Shown: positions 11,187 to 35,974 of the stretch, piece by piece
Layout of the letters: each line of letters begins with the position of its first letter
How positions within the stretch are numbered: the first letter of the stretch is position 1
Source: Winogradskyella forsetii
GTDB lineage: Bacteria > Bacteroidota > Bacteroidia > Flavobacteriales > Flavobacteriaceae
Direction of reading: 5' to 3'
Assembly (NCBI RefSeq): GCF_013394595.1
Contig: NZ_CP053348.1
Coordinates: forward strand, 1,948,001 to 2,012,000
DNA length: 64,000 nt
The notes under the pieces: model-generated
Databases searched by the model: none
Told to the model about the DNA's origin: nothing
The model's input: only the letters and a program-made list of their open reading frames with translations
Translations under genes and position numbers: made by a program

Positions 11187-11714
11187 ATGAAAACACAAGT
11201 ACTTGGTTTAATTGCTTTAGGTCTAACCAACCTCATGATTGCACAAAATGACATTGCTGCAATTACACATTCCGAAGCTGTAATGCCTACTGAAAGTAAG
11301 GCAGAAAGCACAGTTAAAAATCTAAATTCCGAATATTTGTCCTTAACGCGCCATGATGGAGCGGCTTTAGTGGTGAAAAAACTTCAAAATATCGTTGCGA
11401 ATTATAATATAAAGACAGCCGATGTTTACCAGCCAAAACGAAATATCACATATACCGTAAATTTTAAGGAAGATCTAAATTCCATTGATGTTATTTATAA
11501 CAAAGACGGTAAGATACTAAGCTGCAAAGAACACTATCAAGATGTGAGGTTGCCATATGATGCGAGCGTTAAAATTGCAAAGCAATATCCTGGCTGGGCT
11601 TTTGATACTGTTAGTTGTAAAGTTTCCTACTCTGATGATAATTCGCCCGTTATAACTTATGAGGTAATTATAGAAAAAGAAGAAAAAACCAAAAAAATAA
11701 GAGTGACTATCTAA
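11187..11714 (+). CDS. Secreted protein, possibly PepSY-like
   Basis: 175 residues with a signal peptide (MKTQVLGLIALGLTNLMIAQ). The C-terminal half contains LPYDASVKIAKQYPGWAFDTVSCKVSY, which recalls the PepSY-like periplasmic fold (xxAVxxxIxKxYPGW) common in Bacteroidota. It follows the TPR-HTH regulator by 165 bp and is followed by a terminator, so it may be a single-gene unit. The preceding regulator could control it, but nothing in the sequence proves that. Function unknown. Confidence 0.7.
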   Translation: MKTQVLGLIALGLTNLMIAQNDIAAITHSEAVMPTESKAESTVKNLNSEYLSLTRHDGAALVVKKLQNIVANYNIKTADVYQPKRNITYTVNFKEDLNSIDVIYNKDGKILSCKEHYQDVRLPYDASVKIAKQYPGWAFDTVSCKVSYSDDNSPVITYEVIIEKEEKTKKIRVTI

Positions 11715-27505: not shown

Positions 27506-28128
<623 letters not shown>

Positions 28129-28353
28129 TTATAGGACATTATGGAACAATTAGTGTAATAGCGCTTTTGGGCGATATTTGACATACTATTCATATTTAAT
28201 TATCCTGAGGATGATTAAATATGAATACAATAAAGACCTATAAATAATAAAGCTACAGCAATCAATACTTTATCATAAAATAACGTCAATGATTATGTAC
28301 AAGCTAATTGTGGATTGAAATACTAAAAGTAAACTTCATCCTGAATAGAATTC
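28129..28353 (+). repeat. 225-bp tandem repeat, copy 2
   Basis: Starts exactly 225 bp after copy 1 and has the same hairpin at 28187-28227, base for base. Blocks A and B are nearly identical to copy 1, but the ~45-bp middle differs. The next TTATAGGACA starts another 225 bp on (28354), so a third unit began or was truncated. The remaining gap to hipA (28354-28434) holds nothing else. Confidence 0.75.
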
Positions 28354-28434: not shown

Positions 28435-29712
28435 TTAAATGCTATTAGAATAATCGGTAAAATCGTCCTTTATTGATAAGTATACCCTTTCAGGAATATT
28501 CAATTCTTCCGCAATATTTTCCCACTCATAGATAACTTTACAAACTTCGAGTATTATTTTTTTAGGACTTTTTACGGAATACTTTTCAGCAATGGTTAGC
28601 AAATCTGATACTTTAATTTGAGTATTCTTACTATTTAAACTTAGCATATGTGGCGCATTTGGCCATTTCCTCAGTGCGTTTAGAGAATAGTTAATATCAT
28701 ATGAAGGTGAAATTCTCCAGCGATCATTTTCTTTTTCATAAAGAAAAGAATGATTTTTAAGATGATCATCCACATTATTGAATACATAATTAAATACCAT
28801 TCTTCTAAATAATGCATCGATGTCTCCTGATGGTAGATTTAAGTTATTTGCAATTGCAAATACATTTTCATAAGTAGAAACTGAAGGATCTCGAAAATTA
28901 TAACCACTGATACCTGTAGCGGTCAAAACATGTATTTTTTCTCCATTTATGCGATCGTACCTTGTGGTCGCGAAATGTTTGTTATCTATCATTTTACAAT
29001 GCATCATATCCAAACCAGCTAATAAAGCGAGCTTATAATACCCAAACTCAACCAATTCTCTTGAATACCCATCATCAGTATCCATATTCAGTTTGACTAA
29101 ATAATGATTATAATCATTGCTATATTCCACATCTCCAGGAATCAATTCTTTACTCTTTTTATGCTCAGACACAATAATTTTTGGGCGAGCGCCACCTGGA
29201 GATGATCCAAGTTTAAAGATGTTTAGCAGTGCTAAATCAGATAGCTCTAATTCTTTATGGTTTTTCTTCACATCTATTACTTTTCTTAATATACCAGTAA
29301 TGGCGTCCAAATTTATTTTTCCTGCTTTTGGCAATGACTTTCCGGGAAAATATTCTAATGAACCCATTCCCCTATTTGATAGATATGCCAATTGGAAGAT
29401 TGGAGACAACTTATGCTTATCAATATCTTTTGATTTTATCCATTGGTTAAAGACTTGATTTCCAAAATCGTCTGGAAGTGAATCAGCTATCACTGGAGGT
29501 AATCCTCTAAATTCGTGTGCTTTATAGTTTTTAAATATTTGAGTCTGGGAAACACGTTTAATAATGAACGGAAAAATATTGGTATACTGTTTACGCTGCA
29601 GAAAGACTTCACTATGCTGAAAATAGCTTTCTGCTTTAATAGAATCATAGGCTAAAATGCCTATCTCTTCCCCAAAAATTCTGACTTTTATCTTATCTAA
29701 TCTATTATTCAT
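28435..29712 (-). CDS. hipA: HipA-family Ser/Thr kinase toxin
   Basis: 425-residue kinase of the HipA family; characterised members phosphorylate aminoacyl-tRNA synthetases and cause growth arrest. N-terminal HipA domain, then the kinase core: the P-loop-like GSSPGGARPK (about 182-191), catalytic FNNVDDHLKNHSF with D and N, and the metal-binding SPSYDIN (DFG-like). Length is normal. The start overlaps the end of the HTH antitoxin gene by 8 bp, the usual hipBA coupling. It lies inside the accessory island. Its activity and target cannot be told from sequence. Confidence 0.9.
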   Translation of the reverse strand: MNNRLDKIKVRIFGEEIGILAYDSIKAESYFQHSEVFLQRKQYTNIFPFIIKRVSQTQIFKNYKAHEFRGLPPVIADSLPDDFGNQVFNQWIKSKDIDKHKLSPIFQLAYLSNRGMGSLEYFPGKSLPKAGKINLDAITGILRKVIDVKKNHKELELSDLALLNIFKLGSSPGGARPKIIVSEHKKSKELIPGDVEYSNDYNHYLVKLNMDTDDGYSRELVEFGYYKLALLAGLDMMHCKMIDNKHFATTRYDRINGEKIHVLTATGISGYNFRDPSVSTYENVFAIANNLNLPSGDIDALFRRMVFNYVFNNVDDHLKNHSFLYEKENDRWRISPSYDINYSLNALRKWPNAPHMLSLNSKNTQIKVSDLLTIAEKYSVKSPKKIILEVCKVIYEWENIAEELNIPERVYLSIKDDFTDYSNSI

Positions 29713-29989
29713 ATAAGTTTATGTCACTTAAACCATCATCTTCATTGGCTTTTTCTAGCATTAGATTAAAACTTACGTCTAGGTCATGTAATAAATCAAA
29801 GTATTTTAAAATTTTCAAAATATTTAGGGTATTAGAGCCTTTGCCTTTCTCTATATTAATTATCGTCAAACGCGAAACATTAATTCTTTTACCTAACTCT
29901 GCTTGAGTTAAATCTTCTTTGTCTCTATACGATTCTACTAATCGTCCTATTTTATTTATGACTGTTGTAATTGTTATCTGATTATCCAT
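29705..29989 (-). CDS. hipB: HipB-like HTH antitoxin
   Basis: 94 residues with an XRE-type helix-turn-helix (LTQAELGKRINVSRLTIINIEKGKGSNTLNILKIL), the DNA-binding antitoxin fold of HipB. I start at the ATG at 29989; the ORF could open 23 codons earlier, but that would read through the first operator palindrome and add a hydrophobic leader foreign to the family. The C-terminus overlaps hipA by 8 bp. It is preceded by an array of three 18-bp palindromes, which it very probably binds to repress its own operon. Confidence 0.88.
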   Translation of the reverse strand: MDNQITITTVINKIGRLVESYRDKEDLTQAELGKRINVSRLTIINIEKGKGSNTLNILKILKYFDLLHDLDVSFNLMLEKANEDDGLSDINLYE

Positions 29990-29990
29990 A

Positions 29991-30089
29991 TGTATAAATA
30001 TATATACAAATATACTTAAATATACCAAAATAGTATAAATAAATATACATTTAATCAATAATTAAATAAAAAGTATAAGTATATATACA
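29991..30089 (-). promoter_or_regulatory. Operator array of hipBA: three 18-bp palindromes
   Basis: TGTATAAATATATATACA (29991-30008), AGTATAAATAAATATACA (30032-30049) and AGTATAAGTATATATACA (30072-30089) share the form wGTATA-N6-TATACA and begin 41 and 40 bp apart, about four helical turns. A minus-strand -7 box (TATATTTG, 30007-30014) overlaps the edge of the first site, right before the hipB start. This fits cooperative autorepression by HipB. Confidence 0.75.
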
Positions 30090-30134
30090 TTTATTTTGTA
30101 AAATATAAATTTAGTATAATAAAACATACACGGA

Positions 30135-30234
30135 TTCTATATATGCATTTTTGGTTGGCTTTGTTGCTAAGGAATTACATTTGGTATTTAGCTGCTGATT
30201 CTACCTTCCCACTGAGTTGTTGCATTGGATTGTA
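30135..30234 (-). pseudogene. 100-bp fragment duplicated from the NERD gene
   Basis: About 95% identical to 31081-31181 within the neighbouring NERD gene, in the same orientation, with one deleted base. It encodes part of the coiled-coil region (around WEARISKLNTRCNSL) but has no start, stop or extension. It is a decayed partial duplication lying between hipB and the NERD gene. The remaining parts of 30090-30134 and 30235-30315 show no feature. Confidence 0.8.
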
Positions 30235-30315
30235 ATCTGGTTTTGAGATGATTATGGCTTGTAATTTAGTGAAAAAAGTTGTAACCCAAGGTATTGCTCG
30301 TTACATTTATAACGC

Positions 30316-31404
30316 TTATTCTGGTCCATGATTTTTAATGTTGTTTAAACGATGAGCAATATTTGTGACTTCTGAATCCGTATATATAGGCTCAAAATAG
30401 TTGATGAAATCGTTTAACTCATTTAAAGCTTTAACAGTTACAAATTTGAACTCTTCCTTTGGTTTATGATTAATCATCACAATAAGATTTCTTATTTTTA
30501 ATTTTCTATCTCCCCAATGATGTTTGTTCAGAAATCTGCTCTTTGCGGAATTGTTGCTATTTAGAATCACAAAAAGTGCAAAACTTGCCCTCTTTATTTG
30601 ACTCACTGGTGATCTCATATCATACCTTTCAATGGATGCTTTACTCCAGTTCTTTGTTTCTATAATAAAAATACCCGCTCTGCTTACTAAAAGATGATCG
30701 ATTTGAATACTGTAAATACGGTCATTCTCACGTTTATTGTAAATGGGTTCATTGAATTTGACCGAAAAGTCATTGAATAGGACATACGTATCCGGTAATT
30801 TTTTAAGCTCTTTTTCTACTAAACTTTCACCGATTGCTCCTGCGATTAAGTCGTTTAATGAATAAGCGACTTCCTTCATATGTTCAAGTTCGTTAAGTTT
30901 TTTGGTATAGCGATTTGAAATGGTTGCTTGTCTATTTGGCATTTTTGCCTTTATCTCATTTATTTTTGTTTTAAGAATACTTCCTTTTTTATGAGTCTGC
31001 CAACTAACGAGTCTATTGAAATTTTTCTCTAATAGAAACTTTATTAATTTAAAGAACTGCAATTGATACCAGATCGCAGTTTCTATATATGCATTTTTGG
31101 TTGGCTTTGTTGCTAAGGAATTACATCTGGTATTTAGTTTGCTGATTCTAGCTTCCCACTTAGTTGTTGCATTGGATTGTATGGTGTCATATTCTTTTTG
31201 CAATGTATGCTGCTCAGCTAATAAGTCATCTATTTCGAGATCAACGTCATTTTGGATTTTAAAGAGCGCTTCCTCTATTTCGTTGTTATAATTATTAATG
31301 AATGTTTTGATCTCACCAATAGAATTAAATCTAGTGATGCCTTTTTCATCTAAGGTTTCTCTAATCCTTACTAAAGATTCTATTTGGCCAAGGACAATTG
31401 TCAT
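30316..31404 (-). CDS. NERD-domain nuclease-related protein
   Basis: 362 residues. The first ~180 are charged and helical with coiled-coil character. A NERD domain follows, with the PD-(D/E)xK-like set visible as IGESLVEKEL (E193), IDHLLV (D236) and IIETKNW (E249, K251). NERD proteins are predicted nucleases often found with helicases in defence or DNA processing. It starts 23 bp after the UvrD-like gene on the same strand, and the OLD nuclease gene lies upstream of that, so it reads as the third gene of one operon. It carries the source of the duplicated fragment found at 30135-30234. Confidence 0.85.
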   Translation of the reverse strand: MTIVLGQIESLVRIRETLDEKGITRFNSIGEIKTFINNYNNEIEEALFKIQNDVDLEIDDLLAEQHTLQKEYDTIQSNATTKWEARISKLNTRCNSLATKPTKNAYIETAIWYQLQFFKLIKFLLEKNFNRLVSWQTHKKGSILKTKINEIKAKMPNRQATISNRYTKKLNELEHMKEVAYSLNDLIAGAIGESLVEKELKKLPDTYVLFNDFSVKFNEPIYNKRENDRIYSIQIDHLLVSRAGIFIIETKNWSKASIERYDMRSPVSQIKRASFALFVILNSNNSAKSRFLNKHHWGDRKLKIRNLIVMINHKPKEEFKFVTVKALNELNDFINYFEPIYTDSEVTNIAHRLNNIKNHGPE

Positions 31405-31427
31405 GAATAAAACTTATAATTATATCT

Positions 31428-33329
31428 CTAAACCTTTATTACATTAGCTTCTCCGAACCATTCTTTAGCTTTAGCAATAACATTATTAGAGGGAGAATTG
31501 AAATAGATAGCTAGTTTTTCTTTAGATCTTGTACAACAAACATAGAATAGTTTTTGAGTTCTTTCTAGAACAGATTCAGTACCTGCAACTAAGAAGAGGT
31601 TTTTAAAATTATAATTATTCCATCCTCCATTATCTAGAATTACTAATACATTATCAAATTCAGCACCTTTAGTTTTATGTTGAGTTGAAAAAGGTGTAAA
31701 ACCTTCTAAGTAATTATATAATTTTTGGAATTCTTTATATTTTACATTCTTAACTCTATTAAATATATATTCTTTATTAGTTTTAAAACCCTCCAATTTA
31801 TCATCAATTAGACAAATACCATTTTCATTTGCTTCTATAATTACATGTTCAATAGTTTTTTCACCAACATCAATCAATGATTCTATACTCGCTTTTAAAA
31901 CTCTTTTGTCTTCTATATTTCGTATGTTAAACCTATAATCTGTTGCCCTTAAAAATTCATTGTAACGTTTGTTAGAATAAAGAAAAATGTTAGTCTCTAT
32001 TTTAAATAAATGCCTAATTAGAGCATCTCTTTTTGAACCTTTTTTGTTTTCATCATCTTCACTTTGTTTTTTATCATCAAGTAATTGGTCTTTATCCACA
32101 TATATCTTTGAAAGAACATTCCAATTTTGATTCCTAGCGAAATCATATAATTCTGGGTTATCATCGATAAATTGTTGCATAGTATTCGTTGGGTTTACAC
32201 CTACTAAAAAGTCTAAGACTTCCCCAAAAGTCATTTCAGAGAAATCTTCATCAATTCCGTTATCTTTTATGTATTTGCGAACTCGATTTTTATATTTCAA
32301 CACACCATCACTATTATAAATATTCATGAGGTTTCTAATTCCAGCTTTATCAGCAATTAAATTGTGAGTTAAATTAAGCTCTTTTGTGTTTTTTGAATCA
32401 CTAAAATCCCAACCGAGATATTCTTTTATTTCTTGAATGTTGTTAATGTCAGAGTACAAAAATTGAATATTTCCAGTCTTTAAGACACCTCCTTCATCCA
32501 TATTAGGAGCATTTTCATCATCTGATTCAGTTTGTACCAAACCATCTGTTCTAAGTCTATTGGCCAAATCGATAACTAATTTTGGATTTCTCCTATTTTG
32601 TTGCTTCTTTACTTCTCGAACTTCGTCATTTTCTTCGCCTTTATAAGCATCTAAATTGCCAACAGTATTATCATAAATACATTGCATAGCATCTCCAAAA
32701 AAGCCAATAATATTTTTTTTATCACTTAGTTTAAAATGCTCTAAAAAAATCTCTATTACTAATTTGCTAGTATCTTGATATTCATCTACAAAAATGAACT
32801 TAAATCTATCTTTAAGTATATCACTTAGTTTAGGATATGTTAGAAATAAGTGATTTGCTAATATTAACAATTCATCGTGAGAGATTATACCATCTTGTAG
32901 ACGCAAATACTCTTTATATTGAATTCCTTTTTCTAATTCATCGAAAAAATCGTTTGGTACTAGGTCAACAGTTGAAATTTTAATTCTAGTAATTAATTCG
33001 TCATTTGCCAACGAAACAAGGCTTTGTTTTAACTCTTTCTGAAAGTGTTTAATATTATCCCACAAGAAGTCATGTATTGTAGTTACGTTTAAATTTTTAT
33101 GATTTACTCTTTCTTCAATTTCTTTAACTGCTGCATTAGTATATGTCATACAAGCAACCTTTGAAGTAGGGTAATCCTCGATACATTTTTTAATAACTTG
33201 TACTAGAGTATATGTTTTTCCACTACCTGCTCCACCACTTAACAAGAAATTATTACCACTGTTAATATGGTATATTATTTGTTCAAATTCGTCTAGTTCT
33301 TCCATATCACTTCCTACTATTTCAGCCAT
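31428..33329 (-). CDS. UvrD/Rep-like SF1A helicase (GajB-like)
   Basis: 633 residues from the ATG at 33329. Motifs: SGGAGSGKT (31-39, Walker A), MTYTNAAV (Ia), FVDEYQDT (about 180-187, Walker B), FGDAMQCIYD (III), STQHKTKGAEFDNVLV (V) and YVCCTRSKEKL (VI). It belongs to the UvrD/PcrA class that accompanies class 2 OLD nucleases; in the Gabija defence system the helicase GajB is encoded next to GajA. Its start overlaps the end of the OLD gene by 13 bp, so the two are translationally coupled. An alternative upstream start (33365) is unlikely. Gabija membership is inference from arrangement. Confidence 0.9.
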   Translation of the reverse strand: MAEIVGSDMEELDEFEQIIYHINSGNNFLLSGGAGSGKTYTLVQVIKKCIEDYPTSKVACMTYTNAAVKEIEERVNHKNLNVTTIHDFLWDNIKHFQKELKQSLVSLANDELITRIKISTVDLVPNDFFDELEKGIQYKEYLRLQDGIISHDELLILANHLFLTYPKLSDILKDRFKFIFVDEYQDTSKLVIEIFLEHFKLSDKKNIIGFFGDAMQCIYDNTVGNLDAYKGEENDEVREVKKQQNRRNPKLVIDLANRLRTDGLVQTESDDENAPNMDEGGVLKTGNIQFLYSDINNIQEIKEYLGWDFSDSKNTKELNLTHNLIADKAGIRNLMNIYNSDGVLKYKNRVRKYIKDNGIDEDFSEMTFGEVLDFLVGVNPTNTMQQFIDDNPELYDFARNQNWNVLSKIYVDKDQLLDDKKQSEDDENKKGSKRDALIRHLFKIETNIFLYSNKRYNEFLRATDYRFNIRNIEDKRVLKASIESLIDVGEKTIEHVIIEANENGICLIDDKLEGFKTNKEYIFNRVKNVKYKEFQKLYNYLEGFTPFSTQHKTKGAEFDNVLVILDNGGWNNYNFKNLFLVAGTESVLERTQKLFYVCCTRSKEKLAIYFNSPSNNVIAKAKEWFGEANVIKV

Positions 33330-35398
33330 AATAATCCTTCTTTGATATATAAAGGAATTTCCCAATTGGTATATTCTTCATTTGTATGGAATAATATATC
33401 TAGTGCGAAGTGTGTTTTTTTTCTAACACATTTTTCGGCTAATTTATACGAATCATTGGCAGCAACATCAAAAAGATCTCTATTCTTTAATCCTCTAAAA
33501 TCGTCTTTTTTATCATTGATAAATTCTCTGTTAATTTGAATAAATGCATCTTCAAAACTTCGAGCAGTTGTACCACTTTCTTCGGTTTGATATACAACAC
33601 AAAGGTTACCGTTATCATCAGCTTGCCAAACGCCTTCATTTTTGACGATTTTTTTATTTTCAATTGTAAAGGCTTTCAACTCATTTAGAGTGGCGTTATT
33701 AAAAAACAACCTTAGAGCATCGTTAGAATAGTTCGTCCCATCAGCAACTCTACATTTTTTTGAATCATCTCCTACTGCATCCAAATCTGTTATTATTAAA
33801 GATTTAATTCCAACAAACTCAATGAATTTTTCAAAAATTTGTGAATATGCTCCAACCTCAATTATAGATATATTTTGAGAACACAAGGGCAGTTTTGTGT
33901 CTTTTTCAGCCAAAGCATCATAACGCCTTTTCTCTTCTTTATCTAATTTCTTCATTAAAGTTGGTATCAAAATTCTTTCAGTATCTCCTTCAATTAAAAT
34001 AGCTTTGTCAGCAAAGAATATTTCGGCTCTACTAATAGTCAAATACTGTTTTAAAAACTGATATTGAGTTAAATCATCTTCATACTGTTTTTTAAGATCA
34101 AGAAGGTTTTTCGCATTTACAGTGTTTTCACCTTCTTTTTTAAGATACTTTACATCATCAAAATTGCTTTCAGAAACTATGTGTGAGGAGTGAGTTGTTA
34201 TTACTGTTTGCAATTTCCTATTATCACCATCTTCTCGAACAATTCCTTGGTCAAGTAAAGACTTAATGTTTTTAATAAAAACATATTGCATTTGAGGATG
34301 TGTATGCGCTTCAGGTTCTTCTATAAATAACAAATTTATGTCAGCAGGCTTTTCATCTTTACTTTTTTTAAATTCTTGTATTAATATTTCTATCTGAAAT
34401 ATCATACTTATCAAGTTCATATACCCTAGACCATTGTTATATTCAGGTAAAGTCGTATCATTATGTTTGTACATAACTGTTGTGTTTCCTGATAGCAATT
34501 CTCTGTGCTGTAATGAAGATTCAATTTTAATTGTAGAATCATCGCTCTTTATTCCTCCAAATAATCGGACTTTTTCAACAACATCTTCAAATAGAGATTC
34601 ATAAATTCCAGATAAAGTATAATCTGTTGATATTAATTCTTCTTTAAATTGCTCTATTTTTTCATTTTGTTCATCTGTTTTCTCAGTTTCATTATATATC
34701 TCTGATGTTTGACCTGATAGAGTTTTATCATTTTCTTTGTTCGTGACACTTCTTTTAGCACTTATATATTTAAAGCTTATAATATCTTTGGTAGATATTT
34801 TTTCTAAATCTAAATCAATGAAATTATCCTCATTTTCAATTTCATCAATTTTATTATACTCTATAGATTTTCGACTAGATTTAAAGAATTTCCCTTGGTA
34901 CAATTTCAAAAAATAAAATATATCTCTCTGTCTATAGTTTTCATCTTCAACTAATTTCGCAGCCTCCTTTGCTTGAAATTCAACATACTTTTGTTTAATT
35001 CTATCCAATGCATCATATGTTAAATGATATTCATAACCTATAACAATAAACTTGTTTTCAGGATCTAAGTCCATCATGACTCTACTAAGGTTAGCTAGGT
35101 TATCATGTTCATTATACTCTATAAATAGCTTAAGTTTAATGCCTACAGGTGCATATTCTTCTTCGAGTGGTATATCTTCTTCAATTAATGCTTTTAAGTC
35201 ATTTTTGAAATCGATATTGAAATCATCAAATGAAAATCTACTTTTATCTGAACCATTCAAAAAACTGTTTATTACTGCCAATAGTGAAGTCTTTCCTGTA
35301 TTGTTTTTGCCAATTACTAAAGACATTATTTCTTCTAAATCAATTGAGAATTGTTTTAAAAGTCTATAGTTTTCAATTTTAATCTTCTTTATTTTCAT
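33317..35398 (-). CDS. OLD-family ATPase with TOPRIM nuclease (GajA-like)
   Basis: 693 residues. N-terminal SMC-like ATPase with Walker A GKNNTGKTS (30-38), Walker B INLLFIEEPEAHTHP (354-368) and the TTHSSHI motif (401-407). C-terminal TOPRIM with Glu470 in LIEGDTE and D538-x-D540 in TDLDAVG, the two acidic sites needed for cleavage. This is the class 2 OLD arrangement, which in Gabija (GajA) makes an ATP- and nucleotide-sensing nicking endonuclease. A UvrD-like helicase overlaps its 3' end. A perfect-arm 20-bp palindrome stands 20 bp upstream of the ATG. It could also be an orphan OLD system; Gabija is the best fit. Confidence 0.9.
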   Translation of the reverse strand: MKIKKIKIENYRLLKQFSIDLEEIMSLVIGKNNTGKTSLLAVINSFLNGSDKSRFSFDDFNIDFKNDLKALIEEDIPLEEEYAPVGIKLKLFIEYNEHDNLANLSRVMMDLDPENKFIVIGYEYHLTYDALDRIKQKYVEFQAKEAAKLVEDENYRQRDIFYFLKLYQGKFFKSSRKSIEYNKIDEIENEDNFIDLDLEKISTKDIISFKYISAKRSVTNKENDKTLSGQTSEIYNETEKTDEQNEKIEQFKEELISTDYTLSGIYESLFEDVVEKVRLFGGIKSDDSTIKIESSLQHRELLSGNTTVMYKHNDTTLPEYNNGLGYMNLISMIFQIEILIQEFKKSKDEKPADINLLFIEEPEAHTHPQMQYVFIKNIKSLLDQGIVREDGDNRKLQTVITTHSSHIVSESNFDDVKYLKKEGENTVNAKNLLDLKKQYEDDLTQYQFLKQYLTISRAEIFFADKAILIEGDTERILIPTLMKKLDKEEKRRYDALAEKDTKLPLCSQNISIIEVGAYSQIFEKFIEFVGIKSLIITDLDAVGDDSKKCRVADGTNYSNDALRLFFNNATLNELKAFTIENKKIVKNEGVWQADDNGNLCVVYQTEESGTTARSFEDAFIQINREFINDKKDDFRGLKNRDLFDVAANDSYKLAEKCVRKKTHFALDILFHTNEEYTNWEIPLYIKEGLLWLK

Positions 35399-35417
35399 AT
35401 ATATAAAATTGCACTTC

Positions 35418-35437: not shown

Positions 35438-35845
35438 AAAGCAAAATTGCTCTTGAATTTACTTCAAGAAATATGCTCGTATTAATATTAATTAAGGGAG
35501 AGTTTAAATATATAAAAAATGTAAGAATTAATTTGAGGGAAAACCGTAAACATTTGAATACTAATTTATTTAAAACCATTCCACACACATTTTCGCCACT
35601 CCTCTGCCCTTTCTTAAAAAGAGTGTTCCATTAACTGAGTAAAGAAAATTATAGATTAAATTTTTCTACAATAAGATTACTAACATGCGCTTTTAACTCA
35701 AATCGAAGAATGAGATTCGACGAAGCTTGCGAAGTCAAATATCTCATTCAAGATTCATGAACTCATTAACTTAAAATAAAAACCTTGTGAATAAAGCCCA
35801 TGTTTATGCTTCGGCTGCGCTCAGCACAGGCTGCACGCAAGTACA

Positions 35846-35974
35846 ATATAGGACAATTCACAACAATTAACGTAATAGCGCTTTTTAGCGGTATTTGACA
35901 TCATCTGAGTTCTATGACAGTTACGCTGTTATATAACGTTATAGATTATGTACAAGCTAATTGTGGGTTTGAAA
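35846..35974 (+). repeat. Third, diverged copy of the structured repeat
   Basis: Starts TATAGGACAATTC, has block A (ACAATTAACGTAATAGCGC...TATTTGACAT) and block B (TATAACGTTATAGATTATGT...GCTAATTGTGGG), the same ends and the same strand as the copies at 27904-28353. Its middle is shorter and carries a different small hairpin (TGACAG/CTGTTA). With the left copies it brackets hipBA and the GajAB-NERD operon. Confidence 0.75.

What the first reader, a model, noticed from the sequence alone, without database searches (positions are those of the whole stretch)
30316..35398. Three-gene Gabija-like defence operon with a NERD nuclease
The sequence shows an OLD-type ATPase with TOPRIM (E470, D538-x-D540), a UvrD-like helicase overlapping it by 13 bp, and a NERD-domain nuclease-like protein 23 bp behind. 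The first two match the class 2 OLD plus UvrD plan known as Gabija (GajA-GajB). A NERD gene as a fixed third component is not part of the canonical two-gene system as I know it. It could supply a second nuclease activity or be an accessory or anti-escape element. The adjacency of hipBA suggests a defence island.
Basis: partly seen in the sequence, partly recalled or inferred. Interest (0 to 1): 0.75.

Follow-up and report, generated by a model that had tools for sequence, protein, structure and literature searches.

The report
Gabija pair beside an unrelated NERD gene
This is an ordinary two-gene Gabija anti-phage system that happens to sit in front of a separate nuclease-like gene, both carried in an island bounded by an unusual folded DNA repeat that recurs beside changing gene cargo in related bacteria.

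Summary
The genes are as described, all on the minus strand: GajA (33317-35398), GajB (31428-33329 from its ATG, 13-bp overlap) and a NERD-domain protein (30316-31404) 23 bp behind. The first two are a Gabija pair by near-full-length PADLOC matches (940.7 and 771 bits) with the expected catalytic motifs. NERD is not a fixed component: 0 of 16 related GajA-GajB loci have it, among them a same-genus locus at the same site (88% identical GajA and GajB). Of 183 NERD relatives found, the 80 held have no GajA-GajB pair in the fetched DNA. DNA homology to the nearest relatives changes partner inside the 23-bp gap, so a recombination junction lies there. NERD is usually a lone gene. More unusual are the island's edges: direct repeats at 27900-28320 and 35842-35973 that fold as a three-way junction with compensating changes, found in 30 of 397 sampled genomes of the family, next to cargo that differs and is often defence-like. 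Whether they are recombination sites is untested. A functional link between NERD and Gabija in this strain is not excluded.

The parts
33317..35398 (-). gajA: class 2 OLD nuclease (AAA_15 ATPase + TOPRIM), 693 aa
   Evidence: PADLOC PDLC00079 940.7 bits, residues 1-693; PF13175 218.3 and PF20469 56.9 bits; E470, D538, D540
31428..33329 (-). gajB: UvrD-like helicase, 633 aa from ATG at 33329 (a TTG at 33365 gives 645 aa)
   Evidence: PADLOC PDLC00135 771 bits, residues 24-645 of the longer frame; GAGSGKT and DEYQD; start checked
30316..31404 (-). NERD-domain protein, 362 aa; independent gene
   Evidence: PF08378 52.8 bits, residues 189-277; E193, D236, K251 in 80 of 80 and E249 in 79 of 80 aligned sequences
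30126..30234 (-). degenerate copy of part of the NERD gene (about residues 74-111), a scar
   Evidence: 57-nt and 42-nt repeats 98% and 95% identical to 31081-31137 and 31140-31181
29705..30058 (-). hipB-like HTH gene (ORF from TTG; the true start may be an inner ATG)
   Evidence: PF01381 33.5 bits; TIGR03070 41 bits, below its cut-off of 71.65
28435..29712 (-). hipA-like gene
   Evidence: PF07804 136.5 bits, PF13657 25.9 bits
35842..35973 (-). island-edge element, short form, upstream of gajA
   Evidence: fold counts
28125..28320 (-). island-edge element, long form, first tandem copy
27900..28095 (-). island-edge element, long form, second tandem copy (D-type end)

Best explanation
A canonical two-gene Gabija system and, independently, a single-gene NERD nuclease and a hipBA pair are cargo of one variable island bounded by direct repeats. 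Gabija should work as described for Bacillus cereus: GajA tetramers carrying GajB dimers, with the GajA TOPRIM site cutting DNA and GajB acting as a DNA-end-sensing helicase/NTPase (inferred from homology and motifs). The NERD protein is probably a PD-(D/E)xK nuclease that acts on its own (inferred). It came to lie 23 bp behind gajB by recombination (the change of homology partner is shown) and is probably co-transcribed with gajAB (inferred from the spacing).
For: PADLOC matches over nearly the whole of both Gabija proteins and the motifs. NERD is absent from 16 of 16 related GajA-GajB loci: L031-L037, L124-L128, L211, L216, L217, L297. No hit to a full-length NERD-family profile at E <= 1 in 14 GajA-GajB loci. 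In the 395-genome class sample the 8 other genomes with any NERD match (5 of them over most of the protein) and the 8 others with a GajB match do not overlap. The 80 NERD relatives held, of 183, have no GajA-GajB pair in the fetched DNA. DNA homology to G650 and G1172 covers 31438-35403 and 31427-35411 (GajAB only); homology to Arcticiflavibacter luteus covers 30331-31412 (NERD only). Same genus: GajAB without NERD or HipA at the same site (L211), other cargo behind the same left flank (L198). A same-strand gene of 100 aa or more within 60 nt upstream of NERD in 6 of 80 loci.
Against: The 23-bp gap with no terminator-like site in it makes co-expression likely here, so a functional link in this strain is not excluded. 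Genes of other predicted nuclease families follow gajB in some relatives. A profile of 15 GajA proteins did not hit the B. cereus GajA chains in the PDB at E <= 0.001, although the GajB profile hit GajB chains. A domain-only NERD profile gave one weak hit in L035 (E 0.00077, best domain 0.025) that I read as chance. One NERD locus, L084, has a 67-residue GajA-like hit. Some NERD loci end close to the gene on one side, so a GajAB pair there could be missed; genome searches score only the best few candidates per genome.
Confidence: 0.87

Rival explanations
1. NERD is a fixed third Gabija subunit.
For: One locus with a 23-bp gap.
Against: 0 of 16 related Gabija loci and 0 of 80 NERD relatives held show the pairing; the change of homology partner lies inside the gap.
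Confidence: 0.03
2. This Gabija lineage has an interchangeable third slot, often filled by a nuclease; NERD is one filler that backs up Gabija.
For: Genes behind gajB in relatives include DUF2130 (L031, overlapping by 4 nt), RmuC (L035, overlapping), a PLD-SNF2 protein (L128, about 45 nt) and a PLD protein (L127, 261 nt); that DUF2130 and RmuC are PD-(D/E)xK-like is recalled. NERD is discussed as a backup nuclease in BREX PglW (PMC12839542, passages read).
Against: Other followers are Fic, AbiC-like, YfbU and genes without a significant Pfam match; only 10 of 16 followers were given to Pfam. Nuclease genes are common in defence islands and no baseline was measured.
Confidence: 0.1
3. The edge repeats are transcribed RNA structures or terminators rather than DNA recombination sites, and cargo is exchanged by ordinary homologous recombination.
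For: A fold with covariation is expected for RNA too. I recognised no integrase by eye among the ORFs of 22000-44000; only five of their proteins were searched against family libraries.
Against: One orientation within each multi-copy genome, few copies per genome, position beside cargo, and different cargo between the same flanking genes in L180 and L181.
Confidence: 0.4

Closest known systems
Gabija (GajA-GajB)
   Same: OLD ATPase-TOPRIM nuclease and UvrD-like helicase as neighbours; PADLOC models; catalytic motifs
   Different: GajA profile does not reach the solved B. cereus GajA by sequence (GajB does); a foreign NERD gene follows
NERD-domain proteins (PF08378) of defence systems: Mokosh type I, Nhi-like, BREX PglW, a subset of DndF (named in passages of PMC10952713 and PMC12839542)
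   Same: NERD PD-(D/E)xK domain
   Different: Here a separate 362-aa protein; no kinase, helicase or PLD domain was found in it
Integron attC sites and cassette arrays
   Same: Folded, imperfectly palindromic direct repeats beside exchangeable cargo; in some copies outer TTACATAACG/CGTTATGTAA-type ends (reading); attC features are recalled
   Different: Multi-gene cargo of about 3-9 kb; no match over the integron-integrase cut-off in 32 of 32 genomes; ten stretches around recombinase matches hold no element core

Membership tests
Gabija | GajA: OLD-type ATPase fused to TOPRIM | tested here: met
   PDLC00079 940.7 bits over 1-693; PF13175, PF20469
Gabija | TOPRIM Glu and DxD (BcGajA E379, D432, D434 in PMC10781630, passages read) | tested here: met
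   E470, D538, D540; all three columns invariant in 15 GajA sequences. The invariant glycine was not mapped.
Gabija | GajB: SF1A helicase with Walker A and DEXQD | tested here: met
   PDLC00135 771 bits; GAGSGKT, DEYQD; profile hits GajB PDB chains at 2.2e-11
Gabija | gajA and gajB adjacent | tested here: met
   13-bp overlap; the pair is kept in 16 related loci
Gabija | Sequence similarity of GajA to solved BcGajA | tested here: inconclusive
   No BcGajA chain at E <= 0.001 with a 15-sequence profile; OLD-type nucleases hit
Gabija | 4:4 complex and anti-phage activity | not testable with these tools
   Needs experiments
Gabija with NERD as a third subunit | NERD gene conserved beside gajAB | tested here: not met
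   0 of 16 GajAB loci; 0 of 80 NERD loci held
NERD (PF08378) | Domain over the curated cut-off and PD-(D/E)xK residues (the motif assignment is recalled) | tested here: met
   52.8 vs 22.1 bits; residues conserved in 79-80 of 80
Integron cassette / attC (for the edge element) | Integron integrase in the genome | tested here: not met
   0 of 32 genomes over the TIGR02249 cut-off; weaker tyrosine-recombinase matches in all 32, as in 14 of 14 control genomes
Integron cassette / attC (for the edge element) | Site with conserved fold | tested here: met
   All 58 copies: 86.4% of cells paired, 17 pairs with changes on both sides (3 of 500 shuffles reach that), covariation score 0.154 against at most 0.071 in slid versions
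HipBA | HipA-like protein with an upstream HTH gene | tested here: met
   PF07804 136.5 bits; PF01381 33.5 bits

The most novel reading that the evidence does not exclude
The island is one member of an undescribed family of mobile cargo segments in Flavobacteriaceae. Its ends are about 130-190-nt DNA sites that fold into a three-way junction, act as recombination sites (attC-like, but with multi-gene cargo) and shuttle whole defence operons such as Gabija between genomes and sites.
Probability: 0.35. Interest if true: 0.75.

Novelty: new member of a known kind. Interest (0 to 1): 0.35.

Why it matters
It removes a false lead (a three-gene Gabija) and shows how operon-like spacing in a defence island can come from recombination. 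If the edge element is a recombination site, it would give a sequence handle for finding unknown defence genes in this family: proteins on its cargo side match 177 PADLOC families (75 proteins) against 15 on the other side (87 proteins).

Tried and rejected
Rejected: NERD as a fixed component. NERD as plasmid or phage cargo: no match at E <= 1e-5 in either collection, one IMG/VR contig. Edge element as a known RNA: nothing over gathering in the window, L039 and L177 and three implausible hits at E 0.31-0.57. Empty-site search with the right-flank gene: no match at E <= 1e-60 in the 39 other genomes of that search. The left-flank gene matched in 22 of 59 others and 18 were fetched; no clean empty site was seen in the 12 gene tables printed. 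Element core in viral contigs: 0 exact matches of one 25-nt form. No NERD structure model was obtained.

Literature (listings unless said otherwise): three papers hold 'Gabija' and 'NERD' as whole words; two were read by passages and do not join NERD to Gabija there, the third is a drug-allergy abstract book seen only in the listing. Searches listed nothing I recognised as this element or a three-gene Gabija; two of them showed only 10 of 224 and 10 of 23 papers, so this is no proof of absence in print.

Weak points of the counts. PADLOC tallies count families, not proteins; only 25 families are listed per set and methyltransferases match many models. Cargo/control sets come from 28 of 29 loci (L182 dropped). 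NERD-neighbour sets used 145 of 149 and 110 of 112 genes. The first fold count used 31 of 58 copies picked by me, leaving out several with a diverged or interrupted left half; I recounted on all 58. The first classification of element ends was wrong and was redone. In one search one of the 80 NERD loci gave no ORF. Distant GajA hits (L038, L219-L223, L225 and weaker ones) and L218, whose gajA is cut by the contig end, are not among the 16; none of them has a NERD hit.

Full report
WHAT IS THERE. On the minus strand, gajA (33317-35398) overlaps gajB by 13 bp (ATG at 33329), and a 362-aa NERD protein (30316-31404) starts 23 bp behind gajB. GajA matches PADLOC's GajA model PDLC00079 end to end (940.7 bits) and GajB matches PDLC00135 (771 bits); the NERD protein matches no PADLOC model at E <= 0.001. 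Pfam finds AAA_15 and the OLD TOPRIM domain in GajA, UvrD domains in GajB, and PF08378 over its cut-off in the third protein. E470, D538, D540 (GajA), GAGSGKT and DEYQD (GajB) and E249/K251 (NERD) are present. HipA- and HipB-like genes follow. In 1-kb windows the island is about 26-33% GC, its flanks about 32-41%.

IS THE NERD GENE PART OF GABIJA? Not as a fixed part. In an even sample of 395 genomes of the class, matches to the NERD protein occur in 8 other genomes (5 over most of the protein, 3 partial) and to GajB (E <= 1e-20) in 8 others (seven at 49-67% identity, one at 31%); only the window's own genome is in both lists. GajA and GajB lie together in L031-L037, L124-L128, L211, L216, L217 and the Pontibacter plasmid stretch L297: 16 loci. 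tblastn with the NERD protein finds nothing in any of them (the cut-off was 1e-15 and 1e-3 to 1e-5 in the others). At least 1.2 kb behind gajB was held in each. A profile of the NERD family finds nothing at E <= 1 in 14 GajAB loci, the distant L038 and L211 included; a domain-only profile gives one weak hit in L035 that I read as chance. A scan of the species collection found 183 relatives of the NERD alignment and kept the best 80. None of the 80 has a GajB match at E <= 1e-3 in the fetched DNA; one, L084, has a 67-residue GajA-like hit (E 3e-5); three have HipA-like genes.

THE JUNCTION. The nearest GajAB outside the genus in hand (L124; 88% and 82% identical) aligns at DNA level with 31438-35403 only. 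The nearest NERD (L039, Arcticiflavibacter luteus; 80% identical protein) aligns with 30331-31412, besides the scar and the edge repeats. In the same genus, G1172 holds GajAB (88% and 88%) between the yihY-like gene and the DsbA-like gene (my names) that flank the window's island. It has edge elements on the D side and a short partial match to the U side, but no NERD and no HipA; its homology in the cargo spans 31427-35411. G1165, whose yihY-like protein is 93% identical, has an edge element behind that gene and different cargo, among it a cytosine methyltransferase-like gene (my reading); here only the left flank fixes the site. The change of ancestry thus lies within about 15 bp behind gajB. 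A scar at 30126-30234 repeats part of the NERD gene.

WHAT THE NERD GENE IS. In 79 relatives plus the window, E193, D236 and K251 are conserved in 80 of 80 and E249 in 79 of 80. The N-terminal half is probably helical: the family profile meets only helical proteins of the PDB, at chance-level scores (best E 0.015). It is mostly a lone gene: a same-strand ORF of 100 aa or more within 60 nt upstream in 6 of 80 loci and downstream in 5 of 80. Its direct neighbours match 111 PADLOC families against 22 for genes six positions away (145 and 110 proteins), and no PADLOC or Pfam family occurs in more than 3 of 145 neighbours. So it tends to sit near defence genes without a recurrent partner. It has no match in the plasmid and phage collections. 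In 7 of 51 relatives checked the matched segment does not read through. That it is a nuclease is inferred from the domain; no activity was tested.

HOW GABIJA WORKS. PMC10781630 (passages read): GajA tetramers and GajB dimers form a 4:4 complex, the TOPRIM active site holds a Glu and a DxD, and GajB is an SF1A helicase. PMC10952713 (passages): ATP and GTP inhibit GajA, and GajB senses DNA termini and hydrolyses (d)ATP or (d)GTP. The window proteins have the motifs; complex formation and protection are inferred. In the passages read, NERD domains are named in Mokosh type I and Nhi-like systems (PMC10952713) and in BREX PglW and a subset of DndF (PMC12839542), not in Gabija.

THE ISLAND EDGES. 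Direct repeats lie at 27900-28095, 28125-28320 (long form) and 35842-35973 (short form). Only these three copies were found in the whole genome. Short and long forms also bracket the NERD-bearing segment of L039, at 2477-2597 and about 11350-11539. A 28-nt core with up to 3 mismatches occurs in 30 of 397 genomes of the family; the reversed control shows 0 in the rows listed. In the 6 genomes with two or more copies all copies have one orientation. Two kinds of end are seen: U, running on into ...CGTTATGTAACTT, and D, into ...TATTATGTAAAATAG. Of 58 copies, 32 are D, 15 U and 11 neither; the window's own upstream copy is among the 11. In L039, L177, L181 and L188 a U lies at the start and a D at the end of a cargo segment. 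On 31 copies chosen by me a three-way-junction fold keeps 93.8% of cells paired with 10 pairs changed on both sides; 0 of 500 shuffles reach this and slid versions pair 26-42%. On all 58 copies it is 86.4% and 17 pairs (3 of 500 shuffles reach 17); slid versions pair 28-42% and have 10-16 such pairs, but a covariation score of at most 0.071 against 0.154. Related sequences can exceed shuffles without structure. RNAalifold on the 31 gave 19 pairs, 7 with compensatory changes.

CARGO. L180 and L181 share the upstream 337-aa and downstream 583-aa genes but hold different genes between them: a 1112-aa P-loop NTPase in one, a NACHT-like gene with a metallophosphoesterase gene in the other (the names are my reading, and the Pfam tally counts two KAP NTPases and two metallophosphoesterases without saying which). 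Genes on the cargo side match 177 PADLOC families (75 proteins) against 15 on the far side (87 proteins). Pfam finds GmrSD, KAP, HD-CE, DpnII and methyltransferases, but also arginase, deoxyhypusine synthase and thiamine-phosphate synthase, so the cargo is not only defence. In 12 of 29 loci a gene with the motif LLLFIATPIKY lies downstream of the element at 0.2-9.5 kb, in 7 within 2.2 kb, which hints at a recurrent site. No genome of 32 exceeds the integron-integrase cut-off, while weaker tyrosine-recombinase matches occur in all. Ten stretches around such matches hold no element core; a short weak similarity to the window's U region was seen in two of them. Of three stretches examined for repeats, two hold arrays of other repeats that look attC-like to me.

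A POSSIBLE THIRD SLOT. In several relatives another gene follows gajB closely: DUF2130 (L031), RmuC (L035), a PLD-SNF2 protein (L128), an AbiC-like protein (L125), YfbU (L216), a 439-aa gene in front of SMC-like, Wadjet-like genes (L124, my reading); farther off, a PLD protein (L127) and Fic (L297). Ten of the 16 followers were given to Pfam. Nucleases are frequent among them, but no baseline was measured, so I keep this only as a rival.

VERDICT. Gabija: yes, ordinary. NERD as a fixed subunit: no. Defence island: yes, with unusual edges that deserve their own study.

Noticed in passing
window 27900-28320 and 35842-35973; L167-L195, L198-L215: Structured direct repeats at the edges of the island, found in 30 of 397 sampled genomes of the family beside different cargo.
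   Followed up: partly
window 30126-30311: Degenerate duplicate of part of the NERD gene between NERD and hipB; 30235-30311 resembles DNA beside other cargo in L198 (83%, 77 nt).
   Followed up: partly
L180 and L181: Two genomes of one genus with the same flanking genes and different defence-like cargo next to the element.
   Followed up: partly
L031:302-8889 and L033:2312-10465: GajA-GajB directly behind two genes that look like a methyltransferase and a restriction helicase (type III-like by sequence reading), apparently one operon.
   Followed up: no
L126:10547-11386 and L033:10606-11514: Proteins behind gajB without any Pfam match at E <= 0.05.
   Followed up: no
L299 (own genome, C1:2120001-2140000): A tyrosine recombinase with Phage_int_SAM_4 in front of a region with repeats of the type CAACACCGTGTATA; looks like a separate integron-like array.
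   Followed up: partly
own genome C1:9337-9513: A second, short NERD-domain match (33.7 bits, open frame of 131 aa).
   Followed up: no
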